Shown piece by piece: positions 36,443 to 44,890 of a stretch of DNA of 64,000 nucleotides; position 1 is the stretch's first letter; every line of letters starts with the position of its first letter. The position numbers and the translations under genes were made by a program. Origin of the DNA: Neelides folsomi (Eukaryota; Arthropoda; Collembola; Neelipleona; Neelidae); NCBI GenBank assembly GCA_034687125.1, contig JAQGBZ010000015.1, positions 248,001 to 312,000 of the forward strand. The letters are read 5' to 3'. Below the pieces are notes generated by a model. The model was not told the DNA's origin, ran no database searches, and saw nothing but the letters and a program-made list of their open reading frames with translations.

Positions 36443-39268
36443 ATGGAGCGGGCCGAGTCTCCGACCGACGAATTGGAGGGACCGACCCAACTCATCAATC
36501 CGCCAACGCCGGGCGAAAATTCTCATTCGCCGCATTGTAAAATTACTTTATTAATGGATTAATTAAGTAACATAAACTTTTGTCCAGTCTAGTCATTAAG
36601 AAAATCAGTTCATATGTTAATTATTATTTTATTGGGTTTTTAATTTAGCGGCCGTCGAACGGAGTCCTACTCCTGATGAATTCGAAGGTCCAACCCAAAT
36701 GATTGATGAACCTTCGCCTGGTTCACCAACAAGAAGCCGTAGCGGATCGCCATCTCATTTAGGTGCGTACTTTGAATTAATTACAGTTTTTATATTATAT
36801 CTTGGATTATTTGGTTTATTATTTATTAAATAAATTTATTATTTTAAGAAATCCGAAGTCGATCATCAAGCCCAATGGAAACTCAAATGGAAGGTCCAAC
36901 TCAAGTGATTGATGACGAACCGGATGAGCCCATGCATTCTCCACGAGGTTCAAGATCTCCAAGTCCAACTCAAATTGGAGGACCTACACAATTGATTAAT
37001 TCGCGATCACCTACTCCAAGTATTGAATTAAAATAATGTCATTTATTTTAGTTTACTTTATAACACTTTTTCCAGCAAGAATGATTTAATCGATTCAATT
37101 TTATGAATTGTGTTTTGTGTATTTATCTCTTAGATTTAATTTTCAATTATTGTAAATAGATCGTGAAGAGACTCAAGTAATTGAAACGGATGATCCTATG
37201 ATTGGAGCTACTCAATTGATTGACGATCCGGCCGTTTCTCCAAGTGTGGAAAAAGCAAATTCTCGGTCAAATTCTCCAACGCCTTCAAATGCGTCAAGTC
37301 GTTCAAGAACCTCGGTCCGTTCACGTGGTTCCGCTAGATCTAAAGGATCTCGCGGCTCAGCTCGTTCGCGTTCAGGTTCTCGATCAAGATCGAGGTCAAA
37401 ATCCGGTTCACGATCAAAGTCGCGCTCAAGATCTAGATCAAAGTCGGGATCTAGGTCTCGATCCGGTTCCAGGAATCATTCAAGATCAAAGTCAAGATCG
37501 AGGTCGAAATCTGGGTCACGATCTCGTTCACGGTCTGGGTCTAGAGCTCGCTCTGGGTCTAGGGCTCGTTCTGGTTCAAGGGACCGTTCTCGATCCCGAT
37601 CCGGAAGCCCCAATCTAAGGCGATCTCGATCCCACAGCATTGAATCTTCCGTCATTCGAAGACCAATGAAGCGAGTCAAGAGATTTTCTCGTTCAGATTC
37701 TTCAAGTCGGTCAAGGTCCCGCTCACCGCCTAGCAAAAACAGTAAGGAGATTGATATAAAGATTTAGAATCAAATAAGATAATCCTTATTAATTTTACCT
37801 ATTTAATTTAATCAGACGAGACTACTTCTCATCGTCAACGCATTGACTCTGACGAGGAGGAACCAGAGGTTCCTAAAAAGCCTGAAAATGAGGAAGGAGA
37901 AGAAGGTGAGGAAACCGCAGCAGCTGTTGTTCCTCAAGTCTCAGACTCTGATTCGGATGACGAGGGCGGTGGTGTGATTGGAGATAGGAAGCCCAACATG
38001 GACTTCACCTCTGACTTTGACGTCATGTTGGCCAGAAAGAAGGAAGAGCAGACGAAGCGTAGGAAGAGGAAAGACATTGACATCATTAATGACAATGATG
38101 ATCTCATTGCACAACTACTCGGGGATATGAGACACGCTTCGGATGTAAATTTCAAAATTTTGATCTAAACTACTTAAATAATTAATTAAACATTATTTAT
38201 TAAATTAATATTTTCAAAAATAAGGACGATCGAGAAGCAAATCGAGAAGGGAAGCCGGCCACAAAGAAAATTTCTATGTTGAGCGGTGTGCTCTCTCAAT
38301 TGAAGAAACACGATTTGCAAATGGCGTTTTTGGAACACAATGTCTTGAATGTGTTGACCGATTGGTTGGCTCCGATGCCCGATAGAAGTTTGCCAGCATT
38401 GAGAATTAGAGAAACTATTTTAAAACTTTTGACTGAGGTAATTTAAATCTAAATTAATTTATTTTCCTTCTAAATCCTCTTTCGAAAATTATTGAATGTA
38501 ATAAATTAACGTTGACATAAAACATGAATTAATTGTTGATTTCATATTTGTAGTTTCCTCGCCTTGACCAATCAATGTTGAAGCAGAGCGGAATTGGGAA
38601 AGCGGTGATGTATTTGTATAAACATCCAAAAGAGACGAAATCAAACAAAACATTTGCTGGACGGTTGATCAACCAATGGGCTCGGCCCATTTTTAATCTC
38701 TCTACGGATTTTAAAGCTATGAGCAAAGAGGAACGCGAACAAAGAGATTTGGATCAAATGCCGAAGAGACGAAGAGTCTCTGAAGAAGCCCCAGCGCCCA
38801 GAAATCTATCAAATCCTTTAGATGCTTCAGAAAATACGTAAATTCCTATTTAAATTTATTTTATGTATTTAATTTTTAAATAAAATTGTTCATTTATTTA
38901 TTGTTTAATTTTGATTTTGTTTAGGAATGTTCGACCCGGGGAAGCTGGTTGGGTTCCACGTGCGAGAGTCCCAATGCCTTCCACGAAAGATTATGTTGTT
39001 AGACCCAAATGGAACATTGAGACTGACATAAGCAGGGTGAGTTTGAAAATGAATTTAATTTTATTAATGTTATTGAAAGTTAGATAAATAATTGACCATG
39101 AGTGAAATTGAATAACTTTAAATAACTTTAAATGGAATGGATCAGGGGAGAGCGAAGCAGACGACTCGTTTGGACAAACATATTCGATCGTTGGCAGAAC
39201 GGAAAAAGCAATCTAAAGCTCAAAGGGCCGTTTCTATCTCCATTGAAGGAAGGAAAATGAACCTTTAA
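36443..39268 (+). CDS. IWS1: IWS1 transcription elongation factor with an RS domain
   Basis: Partner of the elongation factor SPT6 on RNA polymerase II, linking elongation to mRNA processing and export. Nine exons (36443-36536, 36649-36762, 36849-37019, 37160-37741, 37816-38144, 38225-38437, 38554-38837, 38925-39036, 39146-39268) give 673 residues. From about residue 431 the TFIIS N-terminal-type domain is clear: [50 protein letters not shown] and [16 protein letters not shown]. It is followed by the conserved C-terminal [12 protein letters not shown] and [11 protein letters not shown]. The first 150 residues carry six copies of a (G/E/A)-x-TQ-(L/M/V)-I motif. Residues about 155-315 are an SR-dipeptide-rich domain that is not typical of IWS1. 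All junctions are GT-AG. Confidence 0.95.
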
Positions 39269-39790
39269 TTTAGAGATAACTTTAATTTATGTATTTAAAT
39301 ATCTAATTTAGTTCCTTAATCAACTCGATATTTATCAATTACTTACATATTATTAATCAATATATCCTCCCCAATGAAATGACGTTAAATTGTGAGTTTT
39401 TTTATATTAATTAACACAATGTTTACATTAAACTATTAAATACTTTTATTCTTTATTAATTAATTGAAACAGTTATGAAAGTTATGATCCATTTTTATGA
39501 ATTGGAGCTATTTTCACTATATTGACTAAAATGCGATTTTCATTTTACAAATACTTATTTTTGTTTTTGTAAAACTTACCCGGAAGTTGAATTGTAAGAT
39601 AAAAGTTTAAATAAAAATAGTTTTCATAACTGTTTTTTATTATTTAACTCATACCTGTATCTGTATCATACGAGATATCATATCGCAATGTTATTCAATG
39701 GCCCAAATATGCTTTTAAATCACATAATATACATTTTTTAATTAGAGTTTAAAACATGCTTCATCAATTCATCACGGTTCGTAATATTGA
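39269..39790. other. Tail-to-tail spacer between IWS1 and REV1-like genes
   Basis: 522 bp of AT-rich DNA holding the two 3' UTRs. Nothing else seen. Confidence 0.6.
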
Positions 39791-42700
39791 TTAGAAATTA
39801 AAGCGAAACATTCCATGCCGATTTTTGATGGCATAATCTTGAACTTCGTTGATTACGCGATAGAAAACATTTTTCCAATTTTCATTCACAGTTTCGTCTT
39901 CAATCCTCCTATAAAGTTAAACCATTGATTAGAAATTATTATTAATGTTTTTAAAGTAGCATTTAAAATAAAATCTCAACCTTTTTAAGAATCTTAAAAG
40001 AATCTCGGAATTTGCCGTAAACCCCGTTTTCATCAATTCTGTGAAATAAGTGAGAAAGACATTGAGATCTCCATCATCTGGATTATGTTCGATTTGTATC
40101 ACTCTCCTGATTTCATTCCTCACATCTTCCATTTCATGCTTTCCGTTCAATGCAGGACGGAATTTGGGCATTAGGAAATCGCGAGCTTCGAGTAGTTGGC
40201 CTTTAGTAAGGTGATCGTCGCATCCCGTAAACCAATCTGAGACAACTGGAATTAAATTATCATTTTTTTGCTCTTCAGCAGCTTTATCTAAATATTCGTT
40301 TCTCAGTTGATTGATGGGATTTAAATGATCCCATTTGGAAATGAGGAACGGCGGGGTTGGGCTTTGACATAAAGTTGTGAATCTTCGGGGTTTCCGTTTT
40401 TTCTCACGGGATTTGATAGGGATTTGTGTAGAGAAAAGATCTTCGTCTTCGGAGATTTCACCGGTCGAACTTTCGTCAGAACTTGGGAATTTGACGAGTT
40501 CTTCTTCGCTCGACTCTTCGCTATACAAAGTGGAACATTCAGAAAATGATTCAATTTTTAATTTTTCATTGACAATGTGTTCAACTTTATCAAATTCTTT
40601 TATTTCACATTCTTTGTCCTCTTTATTTTTATTTGAAACAATTTGGATTTTCTTTGTATTTAAAATATGGAATTTATTGGCAATATCCCAATTGTCGATT
40701 CTTTTCCGATTCGAACCTAAGGCTTTTGAACTTTGATCCAGTGAATTTTGAACTATTTTACGCGAATTTTCTGAAAATTTTGACCCAATTTGCTCAGAAG
40801 GAAGTGAAGGAAGAAAATTCTCTACATTTGACTCTTGAGTATAAAATTCCAAAGGTGGGGAGTTACTATCAAATTTGAACAATTGTGTTTGGGAATCCTC
40901 CATGAAATGAAGCGAAGGTTCGTCCACTTCAGGAAGAGAATCATCTGAATCTTGGAAAAACAAACGCCGTGACGAAGAAATTCGACGGATTTGTGAAGGA
41001 GGCAAAGGAGTGGAAATGGCGAATTTGGAAGAACGGAATTTTGAGAATGTTGGAGAACCGGGAGAAATCTCAGAGCATTTCGGAGCTTTAGATGAGATTA
41101 TCTGCGAGACAGGTAATGAATTGACTGATTGTGAGATGGACGAAGATTTGATTGAAGTTGAGGAAGTTGAAGGTTTGGGAGAAATTTGGCGAATCATTTT
41201 TAAATTGGAGGGTTCGGGTGGATAAAGCAAATGCAAGCGAGCTTTTTCCAATTTCCCTTTAAGGACACTTTCCGTGATGAACGAAGGTTTGAGAGTTCGA
41301 CCGCCCAATTTCCTGTTAATATTTATTATTTAAAGTTTTATTAAAAATCCCTATATAATAAAATATCGGTGTCTGTCAGTCAGCGACCGACCTGCAGGGC
41401 TCAATATTGCTTATATCCACAAATTTTCTTTACCAACATATCCGCCAGCTCACGAGTACGAAAATGACAGCTCGGTTTTTGATTTAAATGCTTCGTTAAT
41501 TAATTAACGCCAATTAACCAAAATATTAATCAAGTTTCCCGCAAATTAATTCAACCCTTTACAATTTCATTTTTTGAAAATCCGTGAGGGTTGAATTAAT
41601 TTGTGGGAAATTTGATTAATTTTTTGGTCAATTGGCGTTAACTAATTAACGAAACATTTTTATTAAAAGCTGTCATTTTCGTCCTTGGTTAGAGGCAGAT
41701 TTTTAAGTCTAGTTTTCAAGTGGCTAATAAGAATACCGTGGGCTCTAGGTCGGGCCCTAGGTTTGGGAGCTTAATATTTTATTAAGATAACTGGCCCATC
41801 TTAATAAAATTCAGGTGTCAGGTGTCTTTTAATCGGGAGACCTACAGGGTCCAATGCTCTTATAAGTCCTTAAAAACCTTTTAAAATCATGACAATGACA
41901 CAGAGTTTGGCATTTGCTACCCGATTCGGGTATAACAAAAGGGACAAAAATAGCATTCCACGATTTTGAAAATGTTGTTTCGTTAATTAATTAAGCACGA
42001 ATAATCACAAATTTAACCAACTTTCCCGCTAAGAAATTCAAAACTTTACCAAATATTTTGGAATTATATTTAAGAAACAGTCGAGTTTGTTTACTATTAA
42101 TCCAGTCGCCAATAGAGGGGAAATTAAGCAATGTGATTCCGGATGACTCAATTTAATTTGATTCAAAATAAAAAATGGTCCACAGAGAAACGTTTATAAC
42201 GCCCCCTTTCAAACTTCCCACACAAACAAACTTTCTCTTTCATAAATCCCAACTTTCGTTCAATTTCTGATTATGAATTTTCTTTTCGCAATTCCGCTTT
42301 TAATTTCGATTAAATTCGAGGTCAATCGAGTAAATTCTTTTTCAATATATTGACCCTTAACCATTCTTTTAACTTTCATTCATTATTTTCATTTTATTTT
42401 CTCTCTTAGATATATGTTGCATTCGAATAGTATATATTAGGTAGGGGAACAAACCCGTCGGGAGACGGGCCGGTTACTGGTTAACTAATAAATTAAATCA
42501 ACAGAACCACATCTCTTGAATAAATAGGTGAATTGTATATGCACAATAGGTGAATCAAAATGGTTATTAGCTTAAAGGTGAGTTAATTTTTAATTACTTT
42601 TTCTTTGAATCAGCCAAATTAGTAGCAATGACATAATTGATCCTCCCACTCAAATAAGGAGAATAAATTCCTCCGTGTTTGATGATGATTTCTCGAAGTT

Positions 42701-43076
42701 CGGTTTCAGGAGGATCTAATAAACAAATCAAAAGGAATCAATTTAACCCTACCTTTAACTTTATTTAACTATCAGTATAATGAATCTTTTTGGTTTAACT
42801 ACCTGTTAACCCATTGACGTAAAAAGAAAGGCCATGAAACAAAAGATGAGTTGATTCATTCCCCTCAGACTTCTTTCCGAAATTGAATTGAGCATTCAAT
42901 TTACTCTTTTTATGGTTCATGTAATCGCCCCACTATTGAAAGAATTTTGTTATTTAATCATTTAAGAATTGAGCAATTAAGTAATGAAATAATTAATAAT
43001 TGTAACTTACGTCGACTTCATCACGTCCTGGTCTTTTCTTCTTTTTCTCTTTGGCTAATCTACCCCACCTGTCCAT
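39791..43076 (-). CDS. REV1 homologue with BRCT and C-terminal domains but no polymerase domain
   Basis: Five exons (43076-43011, 42932-42803, 42715-42598, 41312-39981, 39908-39791), all GT-AG, close exactly to 587 residues; human REV1 has 1251. Residues 23 to about 130 match the REV1 N-terminus: WGDYMNHKKSKLNAQF, then the BRCT domain with FHGLSFYVNGLTDP, LREIIIKHGGIYSPYLS, INYVIATNLADSK and LKPSFITESVLKGKL. The last about 100 residues match the REV1 C-terminal domain that binds REV7 and other translesion polymerases: VRNEIRRVIQ, LNVFLTYFTELMKTG, ILLRFLKRRIEDETV, NWKNVFYRVINEVQDYA. Between them is one continuous exon encoding about 330 Ser/Glu/Lys-rich, probably disordered residues with none of the Y-family polymerase motifs. 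Family knowledge says REV1 scaffolds translesion synthesis; this form could only be a scaffold. Divergently transcribed from DHDH 307 bp away. Confidence 0.9.
41458..42050. repeat. Long imperfect palindrome plus a third copy inside a REV1-like intron
   Basis: The stretch 41458-41560 is matched in inverse orientation by 41586-41682, giving arms of about 100 bp around a 25-bp centre. The ends are ACGAAAATGACAGCT and its complement; internal matches include CGTTAATTAA and the AATTAATTCAACCCT region. A degraded third copy in direct orientation occurs at about 41971-42050 (TTTCGTTAATTAATTAAGCA, CTTTCCCGCT). A shorter similarity, CCTGCAGGGCTCAAT at 41391 versus CCTACAGGGTCCAAT at 41840, suggests a larger duplicated unit. 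No transposase frame is present. Confidence 0.75.
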
Positions 43077-43383
43077 TTGTTATAGATAGTTATGTTGAAC
43101 AAATGTTTAATATTCAACTAAAAGTCATAAAGTTAATGGAACATAATTGTATTTAAATAGGTTAATTAATTTCTTGGTGGAGTTTATAGATTTAATAAGG
43201 TATATGGAATTAAATATGACATTTCAAGAGAATTCCCGGAAAGAGAGCAAGTTTAGCTCAACTTTTAGTAACAGGTTGTTCTTTGCAAAAATATATCTTG
43301 TTTGGCGATTTACTATCTTTATAGAATATATATAATTGGTTATTGTTATTGTAGATTAAATATCTAAAAATTAACTTTACATA
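43077..43383. promoter_or_regulatory. Candidate bidirectional promoter REV1-like / DHDH
   Basis: The two start codons are 307 bp apart on opposite strands, so both 5' UTRs and promoters must lie in or overlap this interval unless a 5' UTR intron exists. No TATA box or other element stands out in the AT-rich sequence. Confidence 0.4.
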
Positions 43384-44890
43384 ATGAATAAATTGGATCC
43401 GAATCAACCCCTCAAATGGGGAATTTTCAGTGGTGGTAAAATCAGCAGTGATTTTGTGACTGCTCTTCGTGTTCTGTCAAAGAGTGAACATGAGGTGACT
43501 GGAATTGCCACGAGGGATGAAAACTCTGCAAAGGAATTTGCTCAAAGGTTTCAGATCCCTAAATGGTTTTCATCTTACGAGCAGTTGGCCGCTGACCCGG
43601 AGGTCGACATCATTTACATTGGGTCGGTCAACACTCAACATTTCCCACTGGGCAAATTGGCAATTTCTCACGGGAAGCACGTTTTGATCGAAAAGCCGCT
43701 TTGTGTCACACTCAAAGAAACACAAGAATTGATCGAATACTCCAGAGAGAAAAATGTGTTTCTTATGGAGGTACTTTAATATCTTAATTTAAGGTTAAAC
43801 GCCGTTAATTTGTTAAAGTAATTAATGTGAAGTAATTAAAAATTAAGCTTATCATTAAATGTTTGGATTATAAAGGCTATCTGGAGTCGTTTCTTTCCCG
43901 CTTATGACAGAATACGAGAAGAAATTAAAAGTGGGAGTTTGGGAGAGATTCTTCAAGTCATTGCTTATTTCTGCAGTGCCATTTCTCATAAGGAGAGAAT
44001 CAAGTAAAGGCTTATTTTATATGAACAAAGCTAATAAAAAGTTAATTGTGTTTTAATGGGAATTAACTTTTAAAGGATGAAAGAACTTGGAGGGGGAACA
44101 ATTCTGGACATTGGTGTTTATGCAATTCAATTTGTCACAATGGTTTTCAACGAACGGCCTGAGAAAATCCTCACAGGAGGAGTTTTAAGCCCCGAAGGAG
44201 TTGACGAAAGCTCATCGTTAGTTGAAAATTTAATAATCCTTTTTTAATACATATGATTAATTTGAGTAAATACCTATCTACTGAACTTGAAAAAAAGTAA
44301 TTCATTATTCGATCTTTTATTATTTAAAAGGTCGACGCTTTTGTACTCGGGAGGGAAAACTGCTACGATTATAACACACGGGAAAGTGAAGATGGAGAGT
44401 GAGGCTTGGATTATTGGGACGAAAGGGACCATTAAATTAAGTTCCATTTCATTTTAAATAAATTGACTGTTTAGTAATCTAATTTAAATAAAAATTTATA
44501 TTTCAGTAATTCAATTTGATGGTTATAAAATAATTTTTACTTTTAGGTTCCGTTCCGCTTTTGGTGCCCGCATGAACTCATCACTCCCAATGGAACAGAA
44601 ACTTTTCAACTCCCTCAACTTCCAGAAGGAGCAACAATGAATTATGCCAACAGTGTTGGACTTTCATATCAAGCTCAAGAAATCCGGAAATGTCTATTAG
44701 AAGGTAATTTAATTAATCGACTCTCAACATGGTTTTTAGTTTTTATAAAAATAACTTTAACTTAAACGATTAAATAGGAAAGTGCGAGAGTCCTCTAATG
44801 AAAAAAGAAGATTCCCTCATCTTGGGTGAAATCATGGAATCAATGAGAAAGCAAATTGGTGTCGTTTACCCGCAAGATCTTCAATCTTGA
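43384..44890 (+). CDS. DHDH: Trans-1,2-dihydrobenzene-1,2-diol dehydrogenase (Gfo/Idh/MocA family)
   Basis: Cytosolic NADP-dependent oxidoreductase acting on dihydrodiols and D-xylose in mammals. Exons 43384-43770, 43876-44003, 44076-44216, 44331-44436, 44547-44703, 44778-44890 give 343 residues; human DHDH has 334. The Rossmann start is WGIFSGGKISSDF; the signature EKPLCVT has the catalytic Lys at 104. EAIWSRFFPAYD, LGGGTILDIGVYAIQF, GTKGTIK, WCPHELI and the end IGVVYPQD all align with the family. The junction after 44436 is odd. The conserved frame requires an intron starting TTAAGT rather than GT; the nearest GT donor (44441) with the same acceptor causes a frameshift. An AATAAA lies at 44905, 15 bp after the stop, in the short spacer to the convergent TFIIE-beta gene. 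Confidence 0.93.

What the first reader, a model, noticed from the sequence alone, without database searches (positions are those of the whole stretch)
39791..43076. A REV1 homologue that has lost the whole Y-family polymerase domain
Seen: five in-frame GT-AG exons encode 587 residues with an unmistakable REV1 N-terminus and BRCT domain (YVNGLTDP, IIKHGGIYSPY, YVIATNLADSK) and REV1 C-terminal domain (LNVFLTYFTELMKTG, FLKRRIEDETV, NWKNVFYRVINEV). The 1332-nt fourth exon runs without a break from the end of BRCT into the C-terminal domain, so the about 500-residue catalytic core cannot be hidden in an intron. Known: REV1 uses BRCT for recruitment and the C-terminal domain to bind REV7 and polymerases eta, iota and kappa, and its deoxycytidyl transferase activity is often dispensable. 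Inference: this species uses a pure scaffold REV1, or has a scaffold paralogue. I know of no natural animal REV1 with this architecture.
Basis: partly seen in the sequence, partly recalled or inferred. Interest (0 to 1): 0.93.

Follow-up and report, generated by a model that had tools for sequence, protein, structure and literature searches.

The report
REV1 scaffold without its polymerase
A small-genome arthropod carries a REV1 gene, normally both a DNA-damage-bypass polymerase and the hub that recruits other such polymerases, in which the whole polymerase part is gone and only the hub parts remain; if real, it would be a natural version of the separation-of-function mutants built in mice and flies.

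Summary
Five in-frame GT-AG exons on the minus strand (43076-39791) give 587 residues with a REV1-type BRCT domain (Pfam 1.9e-12), an M1-like stretch just before it, and a REV1-type C-terminal domain (24.1 bits, under Pfam's 26.5 cut-off); the 15 best of 20 solved-structure matches are REV1 entries. One uninterrupted 1332-nt exon joins the end of BRCT to the C-terminal domain, so the Y-family core is absent from this gene. The 75-Mb assembly, apparently an arthropod's (39 Chitin_bind_4 matches), holds pol eta, pol kappa, REV3 and one divergent Y-family gene; searches found no other copy of this protein, no other REV1 C-terminal domain and no REV1-type core. The parts kept are those resolved in the yeast Rev1-Pol zeta structure. 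Most likely this is a polymerase-free REV1 scaffold for Pol zeta. Limits: one genome, no transcripts, no relatives; POLE and REV7 were not found, so the assembly or the searches miss genes; the REV7-binding cage and part of the RIR pocket are not conserved, so partners are uncertain. It fails the Y-family test, so it is a REV1 homologue, not a polymerase. New variant of a known kind.

The parts
43011..43076 (-). Exon 1 (residues 1-22), start codon ATG at 43076
42803..42932 (-). Exon 2 (M1-like stretch and first part of BRCT)
42598..42715 (-). Exon 3 (middle of BRCT)
39981..41312 (-). Exon 4, 1332 nt without a stop: end of BRCT, Ser/Glu/Lys-rich linker, most of the C-terminal domain
39791..39908 (-). 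Exon 5: last part of the C-terminal domain and stop codon
42885..42932 (-). M1-like stretch, residues 23-38 (WGDYMNHKKSKLNAQF), ending 12 residues before the Pfam BRCT match; resembles human WGGYMAAKVQKLEEQF (recalled)
   Evidence: M1 described in PMC12871630 (passages) and PMC11276120
41243..42848 (-). BRCT domain, residues 51-128, across exons 2-4
40160..41221 (-). Linker, residues 136-489, where REV1 normally carries the Y-family core and UBMs; no Pfam match above cut-off
39821..40159 (-). REV1-type C-terminal domain, residues 490-578, across exons 4-5
41313..42597 (-). Intron 3 (1285 nt), the only long intron, inside BRCT; holds a fold-back repeat (arms 41477-41558 and 41587-41668, 89% complementary); no match to the polymerase core

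Best explanation
This is the REV1 homologue, probably the orthologue, of a compact-genome arthropod, reduced to its scaffold. The dCMP-transferase core (fingers, palm, thumb, PAD) has been lost and a roughly 350-residue Ser/Glu/Lys-rich linker now ties the N-terminal M1-BRCT module to the C-terminal domain. Proposed working: M1-BRCT docks on primer-template DNA, PCNA and the Rev3 catalytic subunit, while the C-terminal domain docks on the accessory side of Pol zeta; the linker spans the two, so the protein recruits and regulates Pol zeta and may hand over from pol eta or kappa, with no nucleotide insertion of its own. Shown here: architecture, absence of the core from the gene, and no other REV1 found in the assembly. 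Inferred: that the protein is made, and that it binds Pol zeta, PCNA or other polymerases.
For: Architecture and coding. M1-like stretch at the right distance from BRCT (11 of 5000 shuffles reach its score). Whole-assembly searches: REV1_C rings only in the window (E <= 10); the protein itself matches only its own exons (E <= 1); the Y-family palm family rings at pol eta, pol kappa and one divergent gene only; human REV1 core (recalled) rings only at eta and kappa, weakly (best 28.2 bits). REV3 is present, as are eta and kappa. In print: only Rev1 M1, BRCT and CT are resolved in yeast Rev1-Pol zeta, the core being flexible (PMC11276120, section 13 read); Rev1's regulation of Pol zeta is said to be independent of its catalysis (PMC12871630 abstract); [quoted passage not shown] fly Rev1 catalytic mutants are not MMS-sensitive unless Pol zeta is missing (PMC11309488, section 9 read).
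Against: No transcript, protein or related species. Assembly or searches miss genes: POLE not found in three searches although POLE2 is there; IMS_C rings at pol kappa but not at pol eta. REV7 not found. All three REV7 'hydrophobic cage' residues differ (L1203, Y1244, L1248 to T, H, R), as do D1202 and S1246 (F, M); in the RIR pocket L1171 is E, W1175 is V and Q1189 is V, though L1159 and D1186 are kept (residue roles from PMC8468184 passages). No UBM passes Pfam. The C-terminal domain is under Pfam's cut-off. A synonymous-codon test did not favour the coding frame (0.035 against 0.066 in another frame). In PMC12871630 passages catalytic-dead Rev1 had only intermediate inhibitory activity, and the PAD, absent here, is proposed as the PCNA contact used in Pol zeta regulation. 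Mouse catalysis has a moderate role in germ cells.
Confidence: 0.62

Rival explanations
1. The species has a normal full-length REV1 elsewhere that is missing from this assembly or was missed by the searches, and the window gene is a scaffold-only paralogue.
For: At least one essential gene, POLE, is not found, and IMS_C misses the pol eta locus, so absence is not proof. The BRCT family was not searched genome-wide.
Against: All of a second REV1 would have to be missed: the protein itself and REV1_C ring only in the window, and of the Y-family loci found none is REV1-like. Of the replication and bypass genes looked for, POLA1 and POLD1 (by eye), REV3, pol eta, pol kappa, MAD2 and three B-subunit loci (one confirmed as POLE2) are present; POLE and REV7 are not found.
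Confidence: 0.13
2. Assembly artefact: the polymerase exons were collapsed out of this locus, leaving a false in-frame junction.
For: No REV1-type core is found in the whole assembly, as a collapse would give; reads could not be checked.
Against: The join would have to fall inside coding sequence, in frame, leaving one clean 466-codon stop-free frame with no N. No long direct repeat lies within exon 4; the longest family wholly inside it is 28 nt at 75% identity.
Confidence: 0.1
3. A REV1 remnant repurposed away from translesion synthesis: M1-BRCT still binds DNA or PCNA, but the C-terminal domain has drifted and binds new partners or none.
For: REV7 cage and part of the RIR pocket not conserved; REV7 not found; C-terminal part only 22% identical to recalled human REV1 over 96 aligned residues.
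Against: REV3, eta and kappa remain; pol eta's tail has an FF motif of the RIR kind, KINEFFTSKS; fast sequence change, or a shifted alignment, could alter the contact residues.
Confidence: 0.1
4. An unexpressed pseudogene in early decay.
For: No expression data; synonymous-codon test not in favour of the coding frame.
Against: Five clean exons, four GT-AG splice-site pairs, no stop or frameshift in 587 codons, two recognisable domains; exon 4's coding frame scores best of six for codon usage over the whole exon and in 3 of 4 quarters.
Confidence: 0.05

Closest known systems
REV1 (Y-family dCMP transferase and scaffold; human, fly, yeast)
   Same: M1-like stretch, BRCT and C-terminal domain in the same order; the 15 best of 20 solved-structure matches are REV1 entries.
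   Different: No Y-family core, no UBM passing Pfam; 587 residues, against 998 in fly (end of the residue range 885-998 given in PMC11309488) and 1251 in human (recalled).
Catalytic-dead Rev1 alleles (mouse D568A/E569A; fly Rev1-DTD)
   Same: Scaffold kept, catalysis gone.
   Different: Those are engineered point mutants that should keep the folded core and PAD (inference); here the core is physically absent and the change is natural (PMC11068800 passages; PMC11309488 section 9).

Membership tests
REV1 | Single N-terminal REV1-type BRCT | tested here: met
   Pfam BRCT 1.9e-12; PDB REV1 BRCT 1.5e-14, five best matches all REV1
REV1 | M1 helix 10-20 residues before BRCT | tested here: inconclusive
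   W-G-x-Y-M-x-x-K-x-x-K-L-x-x-Q-F shared with recalled human REV1, ending 12 residues before the Pfam BRCT match; 11 of 5000 shuffles reach the score. That the human stretch is M1 is inferred from its position
REV1 | REV1-type C-terminal domain | tested here: met
   First 11 of 15 PDB matches are REV1 entries, best E 0.0015; PF16727 E 5.4e-05 but 24.1 bits, below cut-off 26.5
REV1 | Y-family catalytic core (IMS, IMS_C) | tested here: not met
   No IMS or IMS_C in the protein; no REV1-type core found in the assembly or window
REV1 | UBM motifs | tested here: inconclusive
   No Pfam UBM; a FLPSLPSEQIG stretch at about residues 271-281 resembles one by eye only; PDB search of it empty
REV1 | C-terminal domain binds REV7 | not testable with these tools
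   Cage residues L1203, Y1244, L1248 are T, H, R in one pairwise alignment; REV7 not found
REV1 | C-terminal domain binds RIR motifs | not testable with these tools
   Pocket: L1159 and D1186 kept, L1172 is I, V1190 is F, L1171 is E, W1175 is V, Q1189 is V
Y-family DNA polymerase | Y-family palm/core domain | tested here: not met

The most novel reading that the evidence does not exclude
The only REV1 of this arthropod lineage is a polymerase-free scaffold: dCMP-transferase activity has been shed altogether, while M1-BRCT and the C-terminal domain are kept to run Pol zeta, perhaps with a rewired C-terminal domain that no longer uses a standard REV7.
Probability: 0.5. Interest if true: 0.75.

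Novelty: new variant of a known kind. Interest (0 to 1): 0.62.

Why it matters
Whether REV1's own polymerase activity matters in nature, beyond recruiting others, has been argued from engineered mutants. A lineage that deleted the core and kept the docking parts would be a natural answer, and predicts a germline spectrum lacking the C insertions credited to REV1 (inference). It also points to the smallest REV1 that might still serve Pol zeta.

Tried and rejected
Polymerase exons hidden in intron 3 or nearby: rejected. A detached REV1 core elsewhere in the genome: the three Y-family loci are pol eta on C69, pol kappa on C168 and a divergent gene on C275 nearest to Dpo4 and eta, which the human REV1 core does not match at E <= 10. 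Relatives of the same form in the large protein set: two searches, no hit (7999 candidates scored, E <= 1, 97 candidates, E <= 0.01); only proteins of about 0.55 to 1.75 times the query's length are candidates, so REV1s of human length could not appear, and the set may be poor in animal proteins, so this says little. A UBM in the linker: not supported. Naming the species from assembly size and contig number: no fitting paper among the 24 listed. The bdelloid repair-gene paper PMC6264785 (two passages) lists REV1 in a gene table and says nothing of its domains. Structure prediction was not run: no related sequences were at hand for an alignment, and the spliced protein is not one stretch of the window.

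Print searches on the topic, whose listed titles and abstract beginnings show no natural REV1 without its core: 9 of 9 listed; 5 of 5; 15 of 49; 14 of 14; 12 of 21; 15 of 18; 10 of 949; 12 of 81; 5 of 5. All are limited to the held PMC papers; I cannot exclude a report elsewhere or further down these lists.

Results that went against me: POLE not found (one search also has one unidentified weak match, C336, 18.9 bits); REV7 not found; IMS_C does not ring at pol eta; REV1_C in the window is below its cut-off; synonymous-codon test not in favour of the coding frame, and the first quarter of exon 4 scored best in a reverse frame; a charge-hydropathy index does not separate the linker (-0.012) from the C-terminal domain (-0.010).

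Full report
What is there. On the minus strand, 43076 to 39791, five exons of 66, 130, 118, 1332 and 118 nt (the last including the stop) with GT-AG introns of 78, 87, 1285 and 72 nt encode 587 residues without a stop or frameshift. Exon 4 lies in a stop-free frame of 466 codons; the longest run in 100 simulated 64-kb sequences of its own dinucleotide make-up was 283. Codon usage trained on eight coding pieces from other genes of this genome scores exon 4's coding frame best of six over the whole exon and in three of four quarters; the first quarter scored best in a reverse frame, and a synonymous-codon-only test did not favour the coding frame (0.035 against 0.066 in another frame). The coding case therefore rests on open length and homology, not codon bias.

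Which family. Pfam gives BRCT at 51-120 (1.9e-12), BRCT_2 at 53-128 and REV1_C at 513-578 (5.4e-05, 24.1 bits against a cut-off of 26.5), two weak matches below cut-off, and no polymerase domain. Of 20 solved-structure matches to the whole protein the first 15 are REV1 entries: five to the N-terminal part (best 1.5e-14), ten to the C-terminal domain (best 0.014). With the last 132 residues as query, the first 11 of 15 matches are REV1 entries, two of them pol kappa-REV1 constructs (best 0.0015). Against recalled human REV1 the first 140 residues are 38% identical over 132 aligned, and the C-terminal part 22% over 96. Just before BRCT, residues 23-38 (WGDYMNHKKSKLNAQF) match human WGGYMAAKVQKLEEQF; 11 of 5000 shuffles of our N-terminus reach the local score. 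That is the place of the M1 helix described for yeast Rev1, 10-20 residues before BRCT (PMC12871630, abstract and passages). Exon 4 holds both the end of BRCT and most of the C-terminal domain, so, unless the assembly is wrong, the two belong to one gene and no intron is available to hide a core.

Is the core anywhere else? The window lies in an unnamed assembly, G000, of 75.1 Mb in 840 contigs. It looks like an arthropod: 39 matches to the Chitin_bind_4 family, an arthropod cuticle family (recalled). The Y-family palm family rings at three loci at E <= 0.001: C69, pol eta (3.8e-43 to solved pol eta); C168, pol kappa (1.5e-53); and C275, a divergent Y-family gene nearest to Dpo4 (0.0009) and eta (0.0055). 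IMS_C rings only at C168, so it misses pol eta: such exon-wise searches can miss real genes. REV1_C rings only in the window, there below its cut-off (22.6 bits), and the protein itself finds only its own exons at E <= 1. So no second REV1 and no detached REV1 core were found. The BRCT family was not searched genome-wide.

How far absence can be trusted. REV3, MAD2, POLE2 and, by eye, POLA1 and POLD1 are present. POLE, essential in known eukaryotes (recalled), was found neither by DNA_pol_B (nine matches: three loci, by eye POLA1, POLD1 and REV3, and one unidentified weak one on C336), nor by its C-terminal family (one sub-threshold match inside the POLA1 locus), nor by a recalled human POLE core. 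Since POLE2 is present, an assembly gap is the likelier cause. A missing second REV1 therefore cannot be excluded. REV7 was not found either: the HORMA family and recalled human REV7 both ring only at MAD2 on C23. REV7 is short and could be divergent or split by introns, so this is inconclusive; REV3's large exon has a REV7-binding-like stretch, FFIPPDIPE, a loose pattern only.

How it most likely works. In the yeast Rev1-Pol zeta structure, only Rev1 M1, BRCT and CT are resolved; M1-BRCT contacts Rev3 and DNA, CT contacts Rev7, Pol32 and Rev3, and the catalytic core is flexible and invisible (PMC11276120, section 13). These are the parts kept here. [quoted passage not shown] In flies the catalytic, BRCT and UBM mutants are each not MMS-sensitive alone, but catalysis matters when Pol zeta is missing (PMC11309488, section 9). 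A species with Pol zeta might thus afford to lose the core. I infer a scaffold with M1-BRCT at DNA, PCNA and Rev3, the C-terminal domain on Pol zeta's accessory side, and a linker between (Ser, Glu and Lys-rich; its flexibility is assumed, since a charge-hydropathy index does not separate it from the C-terminal domain).

Points against a simple scaffold. The three REV7-cage residues named in PMC8468184 (passages) are T, H and R here, and D1202 and S1246 are F and M. In the RIR pocket L1159 and D1186 are kept, L1172 and V1190 are I and F, L1171 is E, W1175 is V and Q1189 is V. Pairwise alignment at 22% identity can shift such columns, but partner binding cannot be assumed. Pol eta here has an FF motif of the RIR type in its tail. 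In PMC12871630 passages catalytic-dead Rev1 had only intermediate inhibitory activity, and the PAD, absent here, is proposed as the PCNA contact used in Pol zeta regulation.

Verdict. The reading 'REV1 without its polymerase' is well supported for the gene; 'the species' only REV1' is likely but not proven; 'working scaffold' is inference. Because the Y-family core was tested and not met, I file it as a REV1 homologue reduced to a scaffold, not as a Y-family polymerase. Nine paper searches on the topic (several with only part of their matches listed) showed no natural REV1 of this kind in the titles and abstract beginnings listed; they cover the held PMC papers only.

Noticed in passing
G000 (whole assembly): No catalytic subunit of pol epsilon found in three searches, while POLE2 is present on C126: an assembly gap or, less likely, a loss.
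   Followed up: partly
G000:C275:76557-77039 (L004, L007): A third, divergent Y-family polymerase-like gene in a more AT-rich stretch (27% GC, against 28-36% in the seven other fetched stretches); nearest to Dpo4 and pol eta; could be a fast-evolving paralogue or a contaminant.
   Followed up: partly
G000 (whole assembly): REV7 (MAD2L2) not found with the HORMA family or recalled human REV7; only MAD2 rings.
   Followed up: partly
41477-41668: Fold-back repeat in intron 3: 82-nt arms, 89% complementary, 28 nt apart, with a diverged further copy at about 41964-42049; looks like a small non-autonomous mobile element.
   Followed up: no
43076-43384: The REV1-like gene starts head to head with a GFO/IDH/MocA oxidoreductase gene on the plus strand, about 300 nt between the apparent start codons: possible shared promoter.
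   Followed up: no
about 36621-39270 (start not determined): Plus-strand gene with a Med26/TFIIS-N domain and a long Arg-Ser-rich tract, IWS1-like by eye, ending by eye about 520 nt from the end of the REV1-like gene, tail to tail.
   Followed up: no
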